IMG/VR virus record: IMGVR_UViG_3300032246_001125
Span: 1 to 38,855 of that record
DNA length: 38,855 bases
Strand: one strand, 5' to 3'
Origin: a virus
Shown here: piece after piece, positions 3 through 38,472 of the stretch
How the letters are laid out: each line of letters opens with the position of its first letter
How positions within the stretch are numbered: the first letter of the stretch is position 1
Position numbers and translations under genes: made by a program
Notes under the pieces: model-generated
The model's database searches: none
The model's input: the letters and a program-made list of their open reading frames with translations, nothing else
Told to the model about the DNA's origin: nothing

Positions 3-317
3 GATCCATCGGTTGGTACTGGAATGGTCGGAGCACCAGCATGTGGTGATGTGATGAAATTACAAATAAAGGTAGAAGATGGCATTATCACAGATGCGAA
101 ATTTAAAACTTACGGATGTGGCTCTGCAATCGCTAGTAGTTCGCTCGTCACTGAATGGGTCAAGGGCAAAACGCTGGAGCAAGCAGGAAGCATTAAGAAT
201 AGCGAGATTGCAGAAGAACTCGCATTACCGCCAGTCAAGATTCATTGCAGTATACTTGCGGAAGATGCGATCAAAGCAGCAGTAAACGATTATCAACTAA
301 AGTGCTCATGCTCATGA
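3..317 (+). CDS. iscU: IscU-like Fe-S cluster scaffold, C-terminal part (5' end outside window)
   Basis: The reading frame is open at the left edge, so the start codon lies outside the window. The visible part begins with DPSVGTGMVGAPACGDVMK, the hallmark of IscU/NifU-N scaffold proteins, which assemble 2Fe-2S and 4Fe-4S clusters from IscS sulfur and pass them to carriers. All three cluster-binding cysteines are present, in GAPACGDV, YGCGSAIASSS and KIHCSILAEDAI, so the scaffold looks functional. The protein ends in a short KCSCS tail with two extra cysteines. Its TGA overlaps the ATG of the A-type carrier that follows (ATGA), so the two are translationally coupled. This is a phage copy, not a host fragment, because it continues directly into phage genes on the same strand. 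Family assignment is very secure; its role during infection is inferred. Confidence 0.93.
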   Translation, partial: DPSVGTGMVGAPACGDVMKLQIKVEDGIITDAKFKTYGCGSAIASSSLVTEWVKGKTLEQAGSIKNSEIAEELALPPVKIHCSILAEDAIKAAVNDYQLKCSCS

Positions 318-625
318 TTACCGTAACAGACTCCGCAAAGAAACAACTGGATGAAATCCTAATGGATGAACCGAATGGAAAATATGTAAGAGCATTTATC
401 TCTGGTGGAGGTTGCTCTGGTTTTAATTATGGCTTTACTATTGAAGAGAACAAACAAGAAGATGACTTTGTTATCGACAATCTCGTAGTTGATGCTATGA
501 GTATGCAGTATTTCGATAATGCTACTATTGACTTTACAAGCGACAAATTAAAAGGTTCTCAATTTGTTATATCTAATCCAAATGCCAAAACAACTTGTGG
601 TTGTGGAAGCAGTTTTTCAGTTTAA
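314..625 (+). CDS. A-type Fe-S cluster carrier (HesB/IscA/ErpA family)
   Basis: This 103-residue protein has the normal length of the HesB/IscA family. The three conserved cluster ligands are present: Cys34 in GGGCSGF, and Cys95 and Cys97 in the C-terminal TCGCGSSF motif. A-type carriers accept clusters from IscU and deliver them to apo-enzymes in the cytoplasm. The start chosen is the ATG at 314, which overlaps the iscU stop codon; the preceding in-frame ATG at 308 is two codons upstream and less consistent with the family N-terminus (MITVTDSAKKQL). Marine T4-like phages often carry a lone hesB-like gene. A scaffold plus carrier pair is less usual. IscA and ErpA cannot be told apart from sequence reading alone. 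Confidence 0.93.
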   Translation: MITVTDSAKKQLDEILMDEPNGKYVRAFISGGGCSGFNYGFTIEENKQEDDFVIDNLVVDAMSMQYFDNATIDFTSDKLKGSQFVISNPNAKTTCGCGSSFSV

Positions 626-1957: not shown

Positions 1958-1986
1958 GCTCAATCCCTTAAAATTGAGCATTTTTT
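1958..1986 (+). terminator. Rho-independent terminator after tmRNA
   Basis: A seven-base stem GCTCAAT/ATTGAGC (1958-1964, 1973-1979) with an eight-base loop is followed by ATTTTTT. It ends the tmRNA transcript just before the ribosome binding site of the next gene. Confidence 0.85.
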
Positions 1987-2006
1987 CACAACTAAAGGAG
2001 AACGAA

Positions 2007-3044
2007 ATGGACTTTGTCTATAATGTCTTGTTAAAAGACATCTCGTACCTCTGGATGATATTCTTCATTATGATCAGTGCGGGACTAGCAAAACAGTATG
2101 AACTGTTCGCCCCTGCTTTTGCCTATGTTAAGAATACATTCAGATCCAATAGATTTGTGGTCGCCCTGTTGAGTGCTATCGGTGGCATTCTACCAATTGA
2201 AGGTAGAGTTACTGTTAGTGCTGGACTTCTTGATACTGTTGCTTCGAAAGATGGCAAGGGTAGAGAGAAATTGGGCATCGTAGACTATCTAGCAACCCAC
2301 CACTATTATTTGTGGTCTCCGCTAGAGAAAACTGTGATTCTTCCAATCGCTGCATTTGGGTTAACCTATACAGCATGGTTGGGATTGATTGCTCCTCTAT
2401 TGGTGGTTAGTTTGCTTTTCATCGGATGGTATATTTGGTCACAAATACACGAAGAAGAAATTGCGATTACACCTGGAAATTTTAAACTAAGTGCTGTATT
2501 ACGAAACACTGTGCCAATGTTTGTTGCTGTTGGAGCATACATTGCAGGTGCTAGTCATATTTTGTGTTTTGGTTTATTGACTTTATATTATGTGATCATC
2601 ACACAACAATGGAATCCTAAGAAACTTTTAGGATACATTAAATGGGATGTGCTTGTTTGGGTTGGTCTAGCAATTATGCTAGGTAACTGGATGAAATCAT
2701 ACGATGGTGCGTGGCAAACTATGCTAAAAACTAGCATGCTTGACCCACATACTTTTGTTGGCATGGTAATTATCAGTGCTATTGGTTTTGTTGCTAGTTT
2801 CTTAATGGGTAGTTCTGGTAAGTTTGTTGCAATTGCTGTATTGATGTCTCAAGTCTTCGGAGTTGAGTACTTCTTATGGTTCTTTGCTTTGGATTTTGCT
2901 GGCTACTTAATTAGTCCAACTCATAAATGTGTTGCTGTTGGTAATCGTTATTTCGGTACACCACTTGCTACATATTATAAGGCACTTTGTTCTTGGGGTT
3001 TACTAATGTTAGTAACCGCAGGTATTATAACTTTTGTATTATAA
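2007..3044 (+). CDS. Polytopic inner-membrane protein, permease-like
   Basis: The 345-residue product is strongly hydrophobic with about nine to ten predicted membrane segments, for example LWMIFFIMISAGL, VVALLSAIGGILPI, FVAVGAYIAGA and LLMLVTAGIITFVL. Polar loops carry GRVTVSAGLLD, HHYYLWSPLEKTV and, near the C-terminus, LISPTHKCVAVG. The last motif recalls the SPxHxC segment of DUF401-type predicted permeases, but the assignment is tentative. The start at 2007 has an AAAGGAG site; a longer open frame back to 1974 would begin inside the terminator and is rejected. The stop is eight bases before the start of the barrel protein, so the two are probably co-transcribed and may act together at the two membranes. 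Substrate unknown. Confidence 0.8.
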   Translation: MDFVYNVLLKDISYLWMIFFIMISAGLAKQYELFAPAFAYVKNTFRSNRFVVALLSAIGGILPIEGRVTVSAGLLDTVASKDGKGREKLGIVDYLATHHYYLWSPLEKTVILPIAAFGLTYTAWLGLIAPLLVVSLLFIGWYIWSQIHEEEIAITPGNFKLSAVLRNTVPMFVAVGAYIAGASHILCFGLLTLYYVIITQQWNPKKLLGYIKWDVLVWVGLAIMLGNWMKSYDGAWQTMLKTSMLDPHTFVGMVIISAIGFVASFLMGSSGKFVAIAVLMSQVFGVEYFLWFFALDFAGYLISPTHKCVAVGNRYFGTPLATYYKALCSWGLLMLVTAGIITFVL

Positions 3045-3947: not shown

Positions 3948-3971
3948 TGAAGGATCCCAATAAAACCTTCA
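3948..3971 (+). promoter_or_regulatory. 5'-UTR hairpin, copy B of a repeated RNA motif
   Basis: Stem TGAAGG/CCTTCA encloses the 12-base loop ATCCCAATAAAA, which matches the loop of the hairpin at 3652-3673 at ten of twelve positions while the stem has changed on both sides. It lies in the leader of the gene starting at 4007. Confidence 0.6.
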
Positions 3972-4006
3972 TTACACACAACTCATAACACACAAAGGAG
4001 ACTTAT

Positions 4007-4279
4007 ATGAGTAATATGACCCCGTTCGAGATTCGCCTAGAACTTTTAAAAATGGCAAAAGACATGCTTTCCGAGGAATACTATGGTAAGCGTGAAGTAA
4101 TTAGCAACGACTGGCAAACTAAAGTCGAATCTGCTAAAATCAATGGTGGCACGATTCCTGATCATCCAGGATTCCCTGCTTACCCAGTAGAAAGTGACAT
4201 CATTGCAAAGGCGCAAGTCTTGAATGGTTTCGTTTCAAACATCCCCCTAGAAACAAAGACTAGCAAAAAGTCAACCTGA
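4007..4279 (+). CDS. Conserved small phage protein, unknown function
   Basis: The 90-residue soluble protein starts MSNMTPFEIRLELLKMAKDML and has a mostly helical, charged N-terminal half, then a proline-rich segment (IPDHPGFPAYPVESD) and a final helix (IIAKAQVLNGFVS). I recall very similar short proteins in T4-like marine cyanophages, without a known function. The start has a strong AAAGGAG site eight bases upstream. A hairpin in the leader and a terminator just after the gene suggest a short transcript with its own regulation. No catalytic motif is visible. Confidence 0.75.
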   Translation: MSNMTPFEIRLELLKMAKDMLSEEYYGKREVISNDWQTKVESAKINGGTIPDHPGFPAYPVESDIIAKAQVLNGFVSNIPLETKTSKKST

Positions 4280-4894: not shown

Positions 4895-5470
4895 ATGATG
4901 GCTAACATGATGAATAAATTGAATTTGGATTTTCTTACAAAAGGTGATAACTCTACACATGGATTTTATCTATTGTTTGATGAAGTTTCCCTACAGACAG
5001 TCAAACCTATCTGTGAGTGGATTATGGAATCAAATTTCTCTGAGGAAAGACCAGAACTATTGAATTTGATAATCTGCTCTCCTGGAGGTGACCTCAATGC
5101 AGCTTTTGCTGTTATTGATACAATGAGAGGTTCGGCTATTCCAATTCGTACAATTGGTCTTGGGCAAATTGCTTCTGCTGGACTTCTAATTTTTGCTGCT
5201 GGCACTAAAGGTCAGCGCATTCTTACACCAAACACTTCTATTCTGTCTCATCAGTATTCATGGGGAGCGTTTGGTAAAGAACATGAGTTGTTTGCTACAG
5301 TCAGAGAATTTGATCTGACTACGAAACGAATGATTGCTCACTATAAAAAATGTACTGGTTTAGCTGAAGCAAAAATTCGTGAAACTCTACTTCCACCACA
5401 AGACATTTGGTTGTCAGCGGAAGAATCTAAAAAACTAGGACTTTGCGATATGGTAAAGGATCTGAAGTGA
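4895..5470 (+). CDS. ClpP-like serine protease
   Basis: The 191-residue protein has the ClpP/crotonase protease fold signature. The oxyanion-region motif is CSPGGDLNAAFAVIDTM. The catalytic serine is Ser94 in GQIASAG, the histidine is His119 in SILSHQYSWG, and the aspartate is Asp170 in QDIWLSAEES, so the triad is complete. ClpP enzymes form barrels that degrade proteins fed by ClpX or ClpA. Phage versions may act as prohead or scaffold proteases or redirect host proteolysis. The tmRNA tag encoded at 1858 is normally a ClpXP signal, which makes this pairing notable. The ATG at 4895 or the adjacent one at 4898 may be the start, both after a CTGGAG site. The gene overlaps the next one (GTGA). 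Confidence 0.88.
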   Translation: MMANMMNKLNLDFLTKGDNSTHGFYLLFDEVSLQTVKPICEWIMESNFSEERPELLNLIICSPGGDLNAAFAVIDTMRGSAIPIRTIGLGQIASAGLLIFAAGTKGQRILTPNTSILSHQYSWGAFGKEHELFATVREFDLTTKRMIAHYKKCTGLAEAKIRETLLPPQDIWLSAEESKKLGLCDMVKDLK

Positions 5471-8235: not shown

Positions 8236-9159
8236 ATGGACATTCAAGCACTACGCAAAATGCGCAACACAGACTTCGGTAAAATCACATCCGAATTCGA
8301 AAAGATCGCCAATCCCGAATCATCAGGTGGTCAAAAATCCTATCAAGACGATCGCATCTGGAAGTTGGAAGCTGACAAGGCTGGCAACGGAACAGCAACA
8401 TTGCGATTCTTACCACGAGTAGAAGGTGATGAACTCCCATGGGTTCGAATCTTCAATCACTCATTTCAAGGACCAACTGGAAAGTGGTACATTGAAAACT
8501 CTCTAACAACCCTCAACGAAAAAGATCCTGTTGGTGAACTCAATTCTAAATTGTGGAATTCTGGTTCAGAAGCCAATAAGGAAATTGCTCGCAAGCAGAA
8601 GCGTCGTTTGTCTTACATTGCCAATGTGTTGGTGCTGTCTGATCCTAAGCATCCAGAAAATGAAGGCAAGGTAATGCTTTTCAAATTTGGTAAAAAGATC
8701 TTTGATAAGATTATGGACAAAGCACGACCAACTTTCGAAGATGAAAAGCCAGTCAATGTGTTTGATCCATATGATGGCGCAGACTTTAAGTTGCGCATGC
8801 GTAAGGTTGATGGTTATGCTAACTATGACCAATCAGCATTTATGGAACCTGCTCCATTGGCACAAGGTGATGAAGAAAAGATGGTTGCCATTCTTAATCG
8901 TCAATACAAACTTGCTGAATTCTTAGCACCAAAGAACTTCAAGTCTTTTGAAGAACTGTCTAAGAAATTGGCTGATGTACTTGATGGAGAATCCTCACCA
9001 GTTAAGTCTGCAGCGAAGTTGTCTGAAGATGATAACTATACACCACCAACTCGTTCTGCTCCGCAAGCAGTTGCTGCAAAACCAGTTAGTGTTACTAAAT
9101 CTACGGATGATGACGAAGATGTTATGTCATACTTCCAGAAGATTGCTGACGAAGCATAA
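8236..9159 (+). CDS. 32: gp32-like single-stranded DNA-binding protein
   Basis: The 307-residue protein is close to T4 gp32 (301 residues). The N-terminal basic cooperativity region (MDIQALRKMRNTDF) is followed by the OB-fold core with WKLEADKAGNGTATLRFLPR, FNHSFQGPTGKWYIENSLTTL, and YIANVLVLSDPKHPENEGKVMLFKFGKKIFDKI. The C-terminus is Ser/Ala-rich and then acidic (STDDDEDVMSYFQKIADEA), the tail that recruits replication proteins. The Zn-finger Cys/His set of T4 gp32 is not evident in the core, as in many marine relatives. The ribosome binding site AAAGGAA precedes the ATG. It coats single-stranded DNA during replication, recombination and repair. Confidence 0.95.
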   Translation: MDIQALRKMRNTDFGKITSEFEKIANPESSGGQKSYQDDRIWKLEADKAGNGTATLRFLPRVEGDELPWVRIFNHSFQGPTGKWYIENSLTTLNEKDPVGELNSKLWNSGSEANKEIARKQKRRLSYIANVLVLSDPKHPENEGKVMLFKFGKKIFDKIMDKARPTFEDEKPVNVFDPYDGADFKLRMRKVDGYANYDQSAFMEPAPLAQGDEEKMVAILNRQYKLAEFLAPKNFKSFEELSKKLADVLDGESSPVKSAAKLSEDDNYTPPTRSAPQAVAAKPVSVTKSTDDDEDVMSYFQKIADEA

Positions 9160-9200
9160 TAATGATTTTCATTAGGTAACAATAATCAATTATCGCCTCA

Positions 9201-9243
9201 AATCCTGTCACTGTTATCATAAGTAATAATGACAGGATTTTCT
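9201..9243 (+). terminator. Hairpin between gene 32 and pqqA, terminator or attenuator
   Basis: Ten-base stem AATCCTGTCA/TGACAGGATT (9201-9210, 9230-9239) with a 19-base loop, followed by TTCTGTC. The T tract is short, so partial read-through into pqqA is plausible. Confidence 0.6.
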
Positions 9244-9265
9244 GTCACTCTTTAGGAGAATTATT

Positions 9266-9337
9266 ATGTGGACTAAACCTGCTGCGACAGAAATGCGTTT
9301 TGGATTTGAAGTTACTATGTATGTGATGAATCGATAA
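9266..9337 (+). CDS. pqqA: PqqA, PQQ precursor peptide
   Basis: A 23-codon gene. The peptide starts MWTKPA and contains [10 protein letters not shown] and a C-terminal NR. It has the same length as Klebsiella PqqA and identical residues at the defining positions: Trp2, Lys4, Pro5, Arg11, Gly13, Glu15, Val16, Thr17, Tyr19, Asn22 and Arg23. Glu15 and Tyr19 are the residues that PqqE, with PqqD, cross-links to build pyrroloquinoline quinone. A ribosome binding site AGGAG sits eight bases upstream, and a terminator follows at 9374. No pqqB, C, D or E is visible here, so the peptide would depend on host enzymes. PQQ is the cofactor of methanol dehydrogenases, so the gene would support energy gain from methanol during infection. 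The gene is preceded by a hairpin; no separate promoter was found. Confidence 0.93.
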
Positions 9338-9373: not shown

Positions 9374-9400
9374 AAAGGGATCCGTTGGATCCCTTTTTTT
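9374..9400 (+). terminator. Strong terminator between convergent blocks
   Basis: Ten-base perfect stem AAAGGGATCC/GGATCCCTTT with a three-base loop, followed by further T residues to 9400. It ends the + strand pqqA transcript. On the - strand the stem could also act after the gene that ends at 9399, but the T tract there is short. Confidence 0.88.
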
Positions 9401-11204
9401 ATGCGTATCTACTATTGAAGTACCTATTGGAACTGGGTTCATCTGATCGAACAGACTTCCTTGCTGCTTGAGTTGTGTTGTTATTAACTACATTGTTTGA
9501 TGTATTGAGAACTGTTTTAGTATCTTCTGGTTTCTTACCAGATGCAGCTTTCAAATCTTCGTTTTCTTTAGATCCACCGAACAATTTATCACCTAACCAT
9601 GATGCAGTAGATGTAACACCTTTACCAACACTTTCAGCACCACTGACTAGAGAATCTTTGTTATTCATAATAGCTCCAGCTGCCATTCCTGCTGGAGTAT
9701 ATTTCATAAACATATCTTTGGCACCACCAGCAAATTTAGATAGACCAGATTCTTTAGGCTTACCAGTTGCTGGATCAATTTCTTCTTTGCCGAATCCCAA
9801 CCAACTTTTAGCACCTTGATATCCTTCAGTGATTGCCCCACCAGCTTTTTTACCGATTTCTGAACCACCATAATATCCAAGAGCACCACCAACTAGTCCA
9901 CCAATGGCTGTTCCAACAACAGGAACAACTGAACCAATAGCAGCACCTGCTGCTGCGCCAGCAAAAGCACCGCCAGCACCACCAACTCCACCACCAATTG
10001 CTTCGCCCTTTTTAACCTGTCCTTCTTCTTTGGTTATTTCTCCACGCTGAACTGCATCTTCAGCATCATTATATCCAGTGTATGCGTCATAAGCACCCAT
10101 GGCAACACCACCGATTGCTCCAATCTTTGTTGCGTGTCTACCTAAGAAACCAGCTGTTTTACTAAGCATCCCACCAGCTTTTGCTAGTTTACCCTTGCCT
10201 TTACCCAGTAGATCCGAAGCAGTTTCTAACATCGAGCCACCACTTTCACCGCCACCACCACTTCCACCGCCAGCACCACCTTCTTTAAGTGCTTCAAGCA
10301 TTTGCTTTTGTACTTCTAAAGACTGAATGAGTGTTTGACCCATTGTTGTTTCGTTCGCAGCTTCTCCCTTTTGGAGATTGATCATTTGTGAAGCAGATTC
10401 AGCTTGAATTCTAGAATCTTCTTGTTGATCTTCTGTCTTTTCTGTATGCTTAGGTTCTTTTGATGCATTACCTTCTTGTATTTCTTTCTTAGCATCAGCT
10501 TTCAATCTCGATTGCTCTCTTGGATCAATCTCCATTATCTTTTTAGTTGCCTTATCTCTGGCTTCTAAGTCTTTAACCTTTGGCGCATATCCTGCTGCTT
10601 TAGATTCATCAATTCTTTTTTGAGCTTCTGTTAATTCTTTTTCTTTTTCTTTAAGTTCAGCGAAGCGTTTCTTTGCGTCTTCAGCTGCATAGTCTTCACC
10701 CTTGAGATTCTTTAAAGCAATTGCTCTTGGATCATTTTGAATAGCACCCTTAACAAACTCGCCTTCTTCTTTCTTATACGCTTGCTTTTGCTCTCTTTTG
10801 TCTAACCAACCAGACACTGCCATTCCTGGACTGAATTTACCCATCCAGTTATTCTTTTTAATGTCTTCTGTTTGATCACCACCAAGAAGAATCTTTCTTA
10901 AACGAGATCCTTTACCATCTTCACCTCTAGCAAGTTTAACATCTTTACTATTAACTTGTTCTGCTTTTTCTGAACCAAATCCACCCTTAATTGCATTCTT
11001 GATGGTTATTTTTGTTTGATCTTCAATCTTTTGCGCAAGAGTTTTTAAATTTTCGTTTAATGTTTCTATTACTTTGGTAGATTTACTATCTTCACTAGAT
11101 TTTTTTGATGAGTCTACCTTCTCCGATAACTCTTTAAGGTTTCGAAGGCTTTTGGCTTGTTCAAACATTATTACATTGCTGAACTGGGTAGATGCTTGTG
11201 CCAT
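9399..11204 (-). CDS. Tape-measure-like tail protein (gp29-like)
   Basis: The 601-residue protein is close in length to T4 gp29 (590), the tail-length ruler and hub component. The N-terminal half is charged and helical, with coiled-coil patterns (ETLNENLKTLAQKIEDQTK, KKRFAELKEKEKELTEAQKRIDESK). A glycine-rich hinge (GGAGGGSGGGGESGG, about residues 310-325) leads to a hydrophobic Gly/Ala-rich segment (about residues 350-450: GAIGGVAMGAYDAY, GGAFAGAAAGAAIGSVVPVVG). That segment would insert into the host membrane when DNA is injected. A low-complexity Asn/Ser tail closes the protein. It lies directly after the frameshift chaperone gene, as tape measures do in many tailed phages. No sequence identity to T4 gp29 was verified; the assignment rests on architecture and position. 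Confidence 0.65.
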   Translation of the reverse strand: MAQASTQFSNVIMFEQAKSLRNLKELSEKVDSSKKSSEDSKSTKVIETLNENLKTLAQKIEDQTKITIKNAIKGGFGSEKAEQVNSKDVKLARGEDGKGSRLRKILLGGDQTEDIKKNNWMGKFSPGMAVSGWLDKREQKQAYKKEEGEFVKGAIQNDPRAIALKNLKGEDYAAEDAKKRFAELKEKEKELTEAQKRIDESKAAGYAPKVKDLEARDKATKKIMEIDPREQSRLKADAKKEIQEGNASKEPKHTEKTEDQQEDSRIQAESASQMINLQKGEAANETTMGQTLIQSLEVQKQMLEALKEGGAGGGSGGGGESGGSMLETASDLLGKGKGKLAKAGGMLSKTAGFLGRHATKIGAIGGVAMGAYDAYTGYNDAEDAVQRGEITKEEGQVKKGEAIGGGVGGAGGAFAGAAAGAAIGSVVPVVGTAIGGLVGGALGYYGGSEIGKKAGGAITEGYQGAKSWLGFGKEEIDPATGKPKESGLSKFAGGAKDMFMKYTPAGMAAGAIMNNKDSLVSGAESVGKGVTSTASWLGDKLFGGSKENEDLKAASGKKPEDTKTVLNTSNNVVNNNTTQAARKSVRSDEPSSNRYFNSRYA

Positions 11205-36189: not shown

Positions 36190-37409
36190 TGGCAGCTCTA
36201 ACACTTCGAAATGTAAAAGGTAGTCCTCTTACAAACCAAGAGGTAGATGATAATTTCAATAACCTTAATACTGAAGTTGGTCTAAAATTAGACGCAACTG
36301 GTTATACCGCAGCTAATGTTTTAACTAAAATTAAAACAGTTGATGGTGTTGGTAGTGGGCTTGACGCTGATTTGTTGGATGGTAAAAATTCTGATTCTGC
36401 TAATACAGTATCTACTATTGTTGCTCGTGATACCAATGGAGATTTTGCAGCTGGTGTCATAACTGCAACAAACTTCGTTGGTACAGTTACAGGTAATATT
36501 ACTGGAAATTTAACTGGAACTGTTACTGGCAACGCAACCAATGTTAGCGGTGTTGTTGCTATTGGTAATGGTGGAACAGGTGCTTCAACAGAAGCTACTG
36601 CTAGAACTGCTCTTGGTCTTGGTAATATGGCTGTTCAGAATAAAACTACAGTTGATATCACTGGTGGCACTATTACTGGTATTACAGATTTAGCAGTCGC
36701 TGATGGAGGAACAGGTGGTTCTACTGCAACTCAGGCAAGAACTAATTTAGGGATAGTTATTGGTTCTGATGTTCAACCATTCTCAAATGAGTTGACTGGT
36801 CTTGCCGCAGTTAATGGCACAGGATTCTATGTTCGTACTGCAGCTGGTACTGCAGGCGCAAGAACTTTATTAACAGGCAACTCTATCACTATCTCTAATG
36901 CAGATGGTGTTAGTGGTAATCCAACCATCGCTCTTATTGCAAACCCTTCAGTCAGTAGTATTGTTAAGACTGGAAGTAATGGTAGCGGTGATGTTGGTCA
37001 GTCAGATAATAGATTTGGAGTACTATACGGAACTTCAACCTCAGCAAGATACGCTGACTTGGCAGAAAAATATACAACTGATAAAGAGTATGAAGTTGGA
37101 ACTGTAATTGTAGTTTCTATGGCTGATACTGGGGCAGAAGGTACTGCGTCATTCGATTATGCTCAAAGAGTTCTTGGAGTGGTTTCTGAGAAACCTGCAT
37201 TCTTAATGAACGATGAAGCGGATGGTCAAGCACTAGCACTTCGTGGTCGTGTTCCTGTTAAAATAGCTGGTCCAGTTAAAAAGGGACAGCCTATTGTTTC
37301 AAATCAAGATGGTCGTGGTATTGTCGGCGACCATGTAAATAGTTTTGCTATTGCCCTTCACACAAATTTAGAAGTTGGTGTAAAACTAGTCGAGTGCGTT
37401 ATTCTTTAA
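36189..37409 (+). CDS. Tail fibre protein
   Basis: The 406-residue protein begins LTLRNVKGSPLTNQEVDDNFNNLNTEV, a phage fibre attachment block, and continues with repetitive collagen-like and beta-helix segments (VGTVTGNITGNLTGTVTGNATNVSG, VVAIGNGGTGASTEATARTALGLGNMA). The C-terminal domain (GTSTSARYADLAEKYTTDKEYEVGTVIVVS...RVLGVVSEKPAFLMNDEADGQALALRGRVPVKIAGPVKKGQPIV) is a widespread fibre end domain that may self-cleave or cap the trimer. It may bind the host receptor. The start overlaps the stop of the previous gene (TAATG). The stop region overlaps the convergent gene's stop. Confidence 0.85.
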   Translation: MAALTLRNVKGSPLTNQEVDDNFNNLNTEVGLKLDATGYTAANVLTKIKTVDGVGSGLDADLLDGKNSDSANTVSTIVARDTNGDFAAGVITATNFVGTVTGNITGNLTGTVTGNATNVSGVVAIGNGGTGASTEATARTALGLGNMAVQNKTTVDITGGTITGITDLAVADGGTGGSTATQARTNLGIVIGSDVQPFSNELTGLAAVNGTGFYVRTAAGTAGARTLLTGNSITISNADGVSGNPTIALIANPSVSSIVKTGSNGSGDVGQSDNRFGVLYGTSTSARYADLAEKYTTDKEYEVGTVIVVSMADTGAEGTASFDYAQRVLGVVSEKPAFLMNDEADGQALALRGRVPVKIAGPVKKGQPIVSNQDGRGIVGDHVNSFAIALHTNLEVGVKLVECVIL

Positions 37410-37981
37410 TATAAGAATATATCTACTGGCATAGCAATTCTTAGATTGCTCTGATATGTAGTAACAAAGTGATAAAGAAAACTGGGGAATATTACATAGT
37501 CCCCAGACTTTGGAGTTAGTAATTCGTGATCGAATAATTGATTGAAGTTTTCGTCATAACCTCTATTGGCATTTTGTCTCGGATCTGTAAACACTATTGT
37601 TCCGCCAGAATTCATCTCCTCAGCCAACAAATAAAACACACAACTAATCTGCGAACCTTTATGGTTATGAAGAGAGATTGTGTATTCATTTCTCATTCCA
37701 GCCAACCAGCCTTGCATACGAAACGACTTCCAATCATATAAAGATTTACCAACTGATTCTTTTAAGAATCTATCAACAGTTGGTTCTATGACATTCTTTT
37801 TAAAATCTTTAATAGGTTTATCATTAGAATCTAGTATATTAGTTTTACTGAAGTCTGATGGTGGTGTATACATATCTGTATTCTGAAACAGGTAGTCACA
37901 GATATCATTTCTATAAGTTTCATTATTCATGTTGCCATATAAAAATGGCGTAGCCCATAAATTGTTTATACCTTCAATCAC
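37406..37981 (-). CDS. 2OG-Fe(II) oxygenase-like protein, family with HxH core
   Basis: The 191-residue protein has the jelly-roll oxygenase pattern of marine phages: SLHNHKGSQISCVFYLL (His105 and His107), GGTIVFTDPR, and PKSGDYVIFPSFLYHFVTTYQSNLRIAMPVD with His171 and Arg181. In the classical 2OG-Fe(II) fold the iron is held by H-x-D and a distal His, and an Arg binds 2-oxoglutarate. Here the first motif is H-N-H, a form seen in the PF13759 group. Substrate unknown; nucleic-acid, peptide or small-molecule hydroxylation are possible. The start is a GTG overlapping the previous stop (GTGA), with an AGGAG site. Confidence 0.8.
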   Translation of the reverse strand: MIEGINNLWATPFLYGNMNNETYRNDICDYLFQNTDMYTPPSDFSKTNILDSNDKPIKDFKKNVIEPTVDRFLKESVGKSLYDWKSFRMQGWLAGMRNEYTISLHNHKGSQISCVFYLLAEEMNSGGTIVFTDPRQNANRGYDENFNQLFDHELLTPKSGDYVIFPSFLYHFVTTYQSNLRIAMPVDIFLY

Positions 37982-38472
37982 GATACTCTCCTAAGCATAA
38001 GGTTAAGAGTAATCCTAGAAATACTTCCTGTATATTCTGTTACTCTATGCCAAACATTTGATGGAAATACGATAATCTGTCCACTCTTAAATGGAATAAC
38101 ATAAGTGTTTGAATCTGAATTTTTACTATCAGAAACCCATTGGGGGTTCGACCAAGAGGGGTCATATAAAACTAAATCTCCACCCTTTCCTTCATCGCCA
38201 TATAATTGAACTACACAAACGAGTTGATTACCATAATGACTATCACAATGAATATCAAAACTGGTATATCCGCTACGAATCCAGCCTTCGCAAATTTCAT
38301 ATTTACCTTCATAATATTTCTCTACAAGATCTATTACGATAGAATTATCTTCAATCAATTCTTCCCAGTCTTTAGAATTACTCGTTGTATATTTGTTGAC
38401 TAACTCTAATACTGTATCTTGTAGAAGATTATTAAAAACAACTTTAGTTGGGAACAGGTTTAACGCATGCAT
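37978..38472 (-). CDS. 2OG-Fe(II) oxygenase-like protein with HxD core
   Basis: The 164-residue protein contains FDIHCDSHYGNQLVCVVQL (His75, Asp77), GGDLVLYDPSW, and FKSGQIIVFPSNVWHRVTEYTGSISRITLNL (His142, Arg153). This is the complete iron triad plus the 2-oxoglutarate Arg of a Fe(II)/2OG dioxygenase. It is not closely similar to its neighbour, so the pair is not a recent duplication. Start at 38472 has a GAGGAG site and lies within the end of the upstream gene. Likely cytoplasmic; substrate unknown. Confidence 0.83.
   Translation of the reverse strand: MHALNLFPTKVVFNNLLQDTVLELVNKYTTSNSKDWEELIEDNSIVIDLVEKYYEGKYEICEGWIRSGYTSFDIHCDSHYGNQLVCVVQLYGDEGKGGDLVLYDPSWSNPQWVSDSKNSDSNTYVIPFKSGQIIVFPSNVWHRVTEYTGSISRITLNLMLRRVS

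What the first reader, a model, noticed from the sequence alone, without database searches (positions are those of the whole stretch)
9266..9337. Phage-encoded PQQ precursor peptide pqqA
A 23-codon gene with its own ribosome binding site encodes a peptide identical to bacterial PqqA at the key residues (Trp2, Pro5, Arg11, Gly13, Glu15, Val16, Thr17, Tyr19, Asn22, Arg23). It sits between gene 32 and a strong terminator. No pqqB-E genes are visible, so the phage would supply only the substrate peptide and borrow host enzymes. PQQ is needed by methanol dehydrogenases, so this looks like an auxiliary metabolic gene that keeps methanol oxidation running during infection. Viral pqqA may have been reported; I cannot check.
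Basis: partly seen in the sequence, partly recalled or inferred. Interest (0 to 1): 0.95.

Follow-up and report, generated by a model that had tools for sequence, protein, structure and literature searches.

The report
Orphan PQQ precursor gene in methylophage
This T4-like virus carries a tiny gene for the peptide that methanol-eating bacteria turn into the cofactor PQQ. The same gene, mostly overlooked by annotators, sits alone in every named, annotated phage of these bacteria I found, so it probably feeds the host's PQQ enzymes during infection.

Summary
The 23-codon ORF at 9266-9337 scores 40 bits against both PqqA models (cut-offs 20-21). It has a Shine-Dalgarno and sits between gene 32 and the terminator that gene 32 shares with the convergent gene. 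Two other T4-like contigs carry the same cassette there; most relatives lack it. Between the window and one of them the gene differs at 13 bases but only one amino acid.

Viral pqqA is not new in itself: one Lake Baikal contig was reported in 2020. What I found is its breadth. It is in all nine Methylophilales/Methylophilaceae phage records the search returned, from about five unrelated lineages, usually unannotated or hidden under a wrong-strand ORF, and in at least 120 IMG/VR contigs. Contigs chosen by the N-terminal half alone keep Glu15 and Tyr19 in 120 of 120. None of 50 such records has PqqE; one has a methanol dehydrogenase. All 120 host-family genomes sampled have pqqA, usually several copies.

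The phage supplies this consumable and host enzymes do the rest. That it is made during infection and raises PQQ or methanol oxidation is untested.

The parts
9266..9337 (+). pqqA, 23-aa PQQ precursor peptide [23 protein letters not shown]
   Evidence: PF08042 40.2 bits; TIGR02107 40.4 bits
9254..9259 (+). Shine-Dalgarno AGGAGA, 7 nt between AGGAG and the ATG
   Evidence: sequence; a purine-rich Shine-Dalgarno is present in 128 of 128 viral pqqA loci
9200..9247 (+). conserved leader with three mutually complementary arms (9201-9210, 9230-9239, 9242-9247), which can form two mutually exclusive hairpins
   Evidence: folds; conserved in L010 and L205
9374..9400 (.). intrinsic terminator shared with the convergent gene; closes the gp32-pqqA unit
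   Evidence: sequence and fold; a terminator of the same kind directly follows gp32 in relatives without pqqA
8236..9159 (+). gene 32, single-stranded DNA-binding protein, directly upstream
   Evidence: phrog_224 E 1.4e-106
9399..11204 (-). convergent gene, 601 aa, glycine-zipper region; neighbour only

Best explanation
The gene encodes a functional PqqA. Made from a small cassette behind gene 32, the peptide is bound by host PqqD. Host PqqE cross-links it at Glu15-Tyr19 and host PqqF/G, B and C finish it to PQQ. PqqA is the only gene product of the pathway that is consumed one for one, so when host gene expression falls during infection it is the part that runs out while the enzymes persist. 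Hosts seem to meet the same demand by carrying several pqqA copies but usually one pqqBCDE set; the phage adds a further copy. The expected benefit is continued loading of PQQ-dependent methanol dehydrogenase, a main energy enzyme of these cells. Shown: identity, selection, recurrence, absence of PqqE, host copy number. Inferred: expression, processing, benefit, and the host of this particular phage.
For: Both PqqA models. Syntenic cassette in three T4-like contigs, L205 with gp32 only about 65% identical. Window vs L010: 13 base changes, 1 amino-acid change; no run with one or fewer changes in 100,000 simulations, 8.8 expected. 106 distinct viral genes: pN/pS 0.18, host genes 0.21. Contigs picked by the N-terminal half only: E15 and Y19 in 120/120, all ending at residue 23. 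All nine Methylophilales/Methylophilaceae phage records returned carry it; the only other hits were a metagenomic phage related to Venkman and two Acinetobacter records, the inspected one carrying a chromosomal-type pqqABCDE cluster. PqqE over cut-off in 0/50 viral pqqA records; intact PqqE in two of three host-family genomes tested. 120/120 Methylophilaceae genomes have pqqA, median 4 copies; multi-copy pqqA with single pqqBCDE is published (PMC4109929). The commonest host peptides are one or two residues from the window's. A terminator-like hairpin follows 62/126 viral pqqA against 23/640 random stretches.
Against: No expression, mass-spectrometry or mutant data. PQQ stays bound in mature methanol dehydrogenase, so a need for new PQQ during one infection is not self-evident. 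Only 1 of 50 viral pqqA records carries a methanol dehydrogenase. Most gp32 relatives lack pqqA, so it is dispensable for the virus type. The third host-family genome tested (G102, a 0.9-Mb assembly) showed no full PqqE. The window's host is unproven: the IscU test did not discriminate.
Confidence: 0.75

Rival explanations
1. The peptide is made into PQQ, but the benefit is something other than methanol oxidation, such as redox protection or another quinoprotein.
For: Only 1 of 50 viral pqqA records has a PQQ dehydrogenase.
Against: Phage carriers with known hosts are all methylotroph phages, and XoxF and PQQ genes are core in this family (PMC4109929).
Confidence: 0.12
2. The peptide is a decoy or regulator that binds PqqD/PqqE or a protease and blocks or diverts the host pathway.
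For: PqqE does not accompany it in 50 of 50 records, so it must act on host proteins.
Against: The cross-linked Glu and Tyr are kept in 120 of 120 contigs and many viral peptides are identical to host PqqA; a decoy need not keep them.
Confidence: 0.06
3. A neutral passenger picked up from the host, with no benefit.
For: Patchy presence among T4-like relatives.
Against: Strong purifying selection, conserved cassette, recurrence in unrelated phage lineages at different positions.
Confidence: 0.05
4. A chance ORF or bacterial contamination of virus collections.
For: Very short ORF.
Against: E 2.6e-11; found in cultured phage genomes; neighbours are phage genes; no pqqE beside it.
Confidence: 0.01

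Closest known systems
PqqA of Methylophilaceae (TIGR02107 / PF08042)
   Same: Length 23, Trp2, Pro5, Arg11, Glu15-V-T-M-Tyr19; one residue from a common host peptide
   Different: Terminal Arg instead of Lys; in a phage genome behind gene 32; no pqqB-E beside it in the window
Viral PqqA of Lake Baikal VP_266 (Coutinho et al. 2020, PMC7678222)
   Same: PqqA in a phage of methylotrophs, proposed to support methanol dehydrogenase
   Different: That contig also carries methanol dehydrogenase; the window does not show one. The paper reports one contig, not the wide occurrence seen here
pqqA of cultured Methylophilales phages (Venkman, P19250A, MEP301, MEP401/402, Melnitz)
   Same: Stand-alone pqqA, 82-91% identical peptide
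   Different: Different genomic positions and phage lineages; unannotated there or overlapped by a wrong-strand ORF
Orphan multi-copy pqqA of host chromosomes
   Same: Single gene, often with its own terminator, several per genome (PMC4109929)
   Different: Cellular, one of 1-12 copies; phages carry one each

Membership tests
PqqA (TIGR02107 equivalog / PF08042) | score above curated cut-off | tested here: met
   40.4 vs 20 bits and 40.2 vs 21.1 bits
PqqA (TIGR02107 equivalog / PF08042) | Glu-X-X-X-Tyr core that becomes PQQ | tested here: met
   Glu15-Val-Thr-Met-Tyr19; kept in 120/120 viral contigs chosen without that part
PqqA (TIGR02107 equivalog / PF08042) | translatable short ORF under protein-level selection | tested here: met
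   Shine-Dalgarno and pN/pS 0.18
PqqA (TIGR02107 equivalog / PF08042) | converted to PQQ by PqqD/E and later enzymes | not testable with these tools
   needs biochemistry or complementation
Auxiliary metabolic gene of phages | host-type metabolic gene inside a bona fide phage genome | tested here: met
   between gp32 and a convergent phage gene; in cultured phages
Auxiliary metabolic gene of phages | variable among close relatives, shared with phages of the same host guild | tested here: met
   1 of 50 nearest gp32 relatives has it; among cultured phages with known hosts only methylotroph phages do
Auxiliary metabolic gene of phages | expressed in infection and changes host metabolism | not testable with these tools
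   no expression data available
pqqABCDE biosynthetic operon | pqqB-E beside pqqA | tested here: not met
   none in the window; PqqE over cut-off in 0 of 50 viral pqqA records

The most novel reading that the evidence does not exclude
Carrying only the consumable precursor peptide of a ribosomally made cofactor is a near-universal and repeatedly acquired strategy of phages of aquatic methylotrophs, missed because the gene is too short to be called. PqqA supply, not enzyme, would be the bottleneck for PQQ in infected cells, and in these T4-like phages its output may be tuned by a conserved switchable leader.
Probability: 0.45. Interest if true: 0.75.

Novelty: new member of a known kind. Interest (0 to 1): 0.6.

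Why it matters
Phages of the small aquatic methylotrophs (OM43, Methylopumilus) are abundant, and in the papers I could read their auxiliary genes were not linked to methylotrophy apart from a single Lake Baikal study. If nearly all carry pqqA, virus infection is tied to methanol oxidation, a real carbon flux, and the tie can be tested at once in published phage-host cultures. And it shows a blind spot, since gene callers tend to skip a 23-codon gene.

Tried and rejected
Late promoter before pqqA: TATAAATA is not enriched in the window (3 found, 4.2 expected) and no sigma-70-like site was found on the plus strand between gp32 and pqqA. Window-type leader taken from the host: the motif is not upstream of host pqqA or of other phages' pqqA. 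Host assignment through the window's IscU: best matches 88% in Methylophilaceae and 87% elsewhere in the class, so not decisive. The Acinetobacter phage hits were set aside: the one inspected carries pqqBCDE beside pqqA.

Full report
What is there. The reading frame 9266-9337 (+) encodes [23 protein letters not shown], preceded by AGGAG at 7 nt. It scores 40.2 bits against Pfam PqqA (cut-off 21.1, E 2.6e-11, no hit in 14 control genomes) and 40.4 bits against the NCBIfam equivalog TIGR02107 (cut-off 20). The degenerate DNA word for its EVTMY core occurs once in the window and in none of 100 shuffles.

Anatomy. The gene lies behind gene 32 (phrog_224) and before a terminator hairpin at 9374-9400 shared with the convergent 601-aa gene. 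In relatives without pqqA (L011, L012, L013, L015, L033, L038, L045, L064) the gp32 stop is followed within a few tens of bases by a terminator of the same kind and the convergent gene; L009 also lacks pqqA there. In the window, L010 and L205 a cassette of roughly 200 bases or less, with leader, Shine-Dalgarno and pqqA, sits in between. So pqqA can be transcribed with gene 32. The leader contains a strong hairpin (AATCCTGTCA/TGACAGGATT) whose 3' arm can instead pair with a following CTGTCA. This three-armed element is kept in all three contigs, though L010 keeps only about seven pairs of the outer first stem, and was not found upstream of other pqqA genes. Its role is unknown; three sequences are too few for a covariation test.

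Is it maintained as a protein? Window and L010 differ at 13 of 72 bases in the gene but at one residue (Arg/Lys, the last). A simulation of 13 random changes gives 8.8 residue changes on average and never one or fewer in 100,000 runs. Over 106 distinct viral genes pN/pS is 0.18, close to 0.21 for host genes, with synonymous sites near saturation. Arg11 is invariant in 118 of 118 viral 23-mers while using five codons of both the CGN and AGA types.

How widespread is it? A search of 50,697 phage records gave 12 matches: all nine named Methylophilales or Methylophilaceae phage records that appear (Venkman, P19250A, MEP301, MEP401, MEP402, four Melnitz), one metagenomic phage (MW202481) related to Venkman, and two Acinetobacter records, of which the one inspected has pqqBCDE beside pqqA and looks chromosomal. 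In most of these the gene is not annotated; in MW202481 and Melnitz a hypothetical protein was called on the opposite strand over it. Relatives of these phages infecting Pelagibacter, cyanobacteria or Vibrio are in the same collection and none matched. Because that pattern forces the core, I repeated the scan with only the N-terminal half: again 120 contigs, all keeping Glu15 and Tyr19 and ending at residue 23. Most of these contigs share proteins with the cultured methylophages or the window. A second PqqA type occurs on contigs with SU10-like portal or Mu-like capsid proteins.

Position and lineage. The gene sits after gene 32 in the window group; between a hypothetical gene and tRNA-Leu in Melnitz; antisense to its neighbours in Venkman and MEP301; at the end of an operon in P19250A; at the head of an operon in MEP401. 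Different sites in different lineages suggest repeated acquisition or exchange; a 23-residue peptide is too short for a tree, so I did not attempt one.

Partners. PqqE over the cut-off was absent from all 50 viral pqqA records tested, up to 98 kb, and no PQQ gene is annotated in the five phage genomes read in full. One record of 50, a 72-kb contig, has a methanol dehydrogenase; its sequence carries the WDYDG motif that I recall as typical of lanthanide-type XoxF. PqqE over the cut-off is present in two of three host-family genomes tested. All 120 Methylophilaceae genomes sampled have pqqA, median 4 copies, range 1-12, and genomes up to 1.4 Mb still have a median of 3. The literature notes the same pattern, many pqqA with one pqqBCDE set (PMC4109929). 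In Methylorubrum extorquens loss of one pqqA lowers but does not abolish PQQ, and multiple copies are the suggested reason (PMC6520949).

Mechanism. Published work has PqqD binding the PqqA leader and presenting the Glu and Tyr to PqqE for cross-linking (PMC10906245). Each PQQ uses up one PqqA, while the enzymes turn over. From this I infer that the phage brings the consumable and uses host enzymes. What is not shown is expression, conversion, or a benefit to methanol oxidation. A weak point is that PQQ is held by the enzyme and not spent in catalysis, so the demand for new PQQ in one infection must come from new enzyme, from loss, or from another use.

Known or new? A viral PqqA was reported once, in Lake Baikal contig VP_266 (PMC7678222). 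The papers on Venkman, MEP301, Melnitz and MEP401 that I could search do not mention it in phage genomes; PQQ appears only as a medium supplement in the Melnitz paper (PMC8163748, PMC8024684, PMC9004378, PMC10580990). The P19250A paper was not read. The window is therefore a new member of a known kind; the wide, overlooked occurrence is the part I did not find reported, within an open-access library only.

Host of this phage. Not proven. The peptide matches Methylophilaceae except at the last residue and the sister contigs fit, but gp32 is about equally close to Melnitz (52%) and a cyanophage (51%) and IscU did not discriminate.

Noticed in passing
window 9200-9247: Leader with three mutually complementary arms allowing two exclusive hairpins, conserved in three T4-like contigs with pqqA and not seen upstream of other pqqA genes; could be an attenuator or an RNA stability element.
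   Followed up: partly
window 3-625: IscU/NifU-type scaffold gene followed by an A-type Fe-S carrier gene at the left edge; PqqE is an Fe-S radical SAM enzyme, but Fe-S genes may serve other ends.
   Followed up: partly
window 1974-3044: DUF401-type permease whose only phage homologues found are in T4-like Synechococcus phages (about 35% identity).
   Followed up: partly
window 37406-38472: Two adjacent 2OG-Fe(II) oxygenase genes.
   Followed up: no
window 4895-5470: ClpP-like or head-maturation-type protease gene in the left half of the window.
   Followed up: no
L131 / L331 (IMGVR_UViG_3300025120_009955, 72 kb): Phage contig with a full-length XoxF-like methanol dehydrogenase about 6 kb from pqqA and next to a repeat-rich curlin-like ORF.
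   Followed up: partly
L002 (MW202481) 2067-2195 and L007 (Melnitz) 3961-4056: Hypothetical proteins annotated on the opposite strand over pqqA; probable annotation errors.
   Followed up: yes
L008 (CAKLQF020000010): Record named Acinetobacter phage MD-2021a holds polyphosphate kinase and pqqABCDE; it looks like chromosomal DNA in a phage collection.
   Followed up: partly
L092, L101, L106, L112, L116: Second type of viral PqqA (TYExIRLGFEVTMYFK), on contigs some of which carry SU10-like portal or Mu-like capsid genes; hosts unknown, possibly other methylotrophs.
   Followed up: partly
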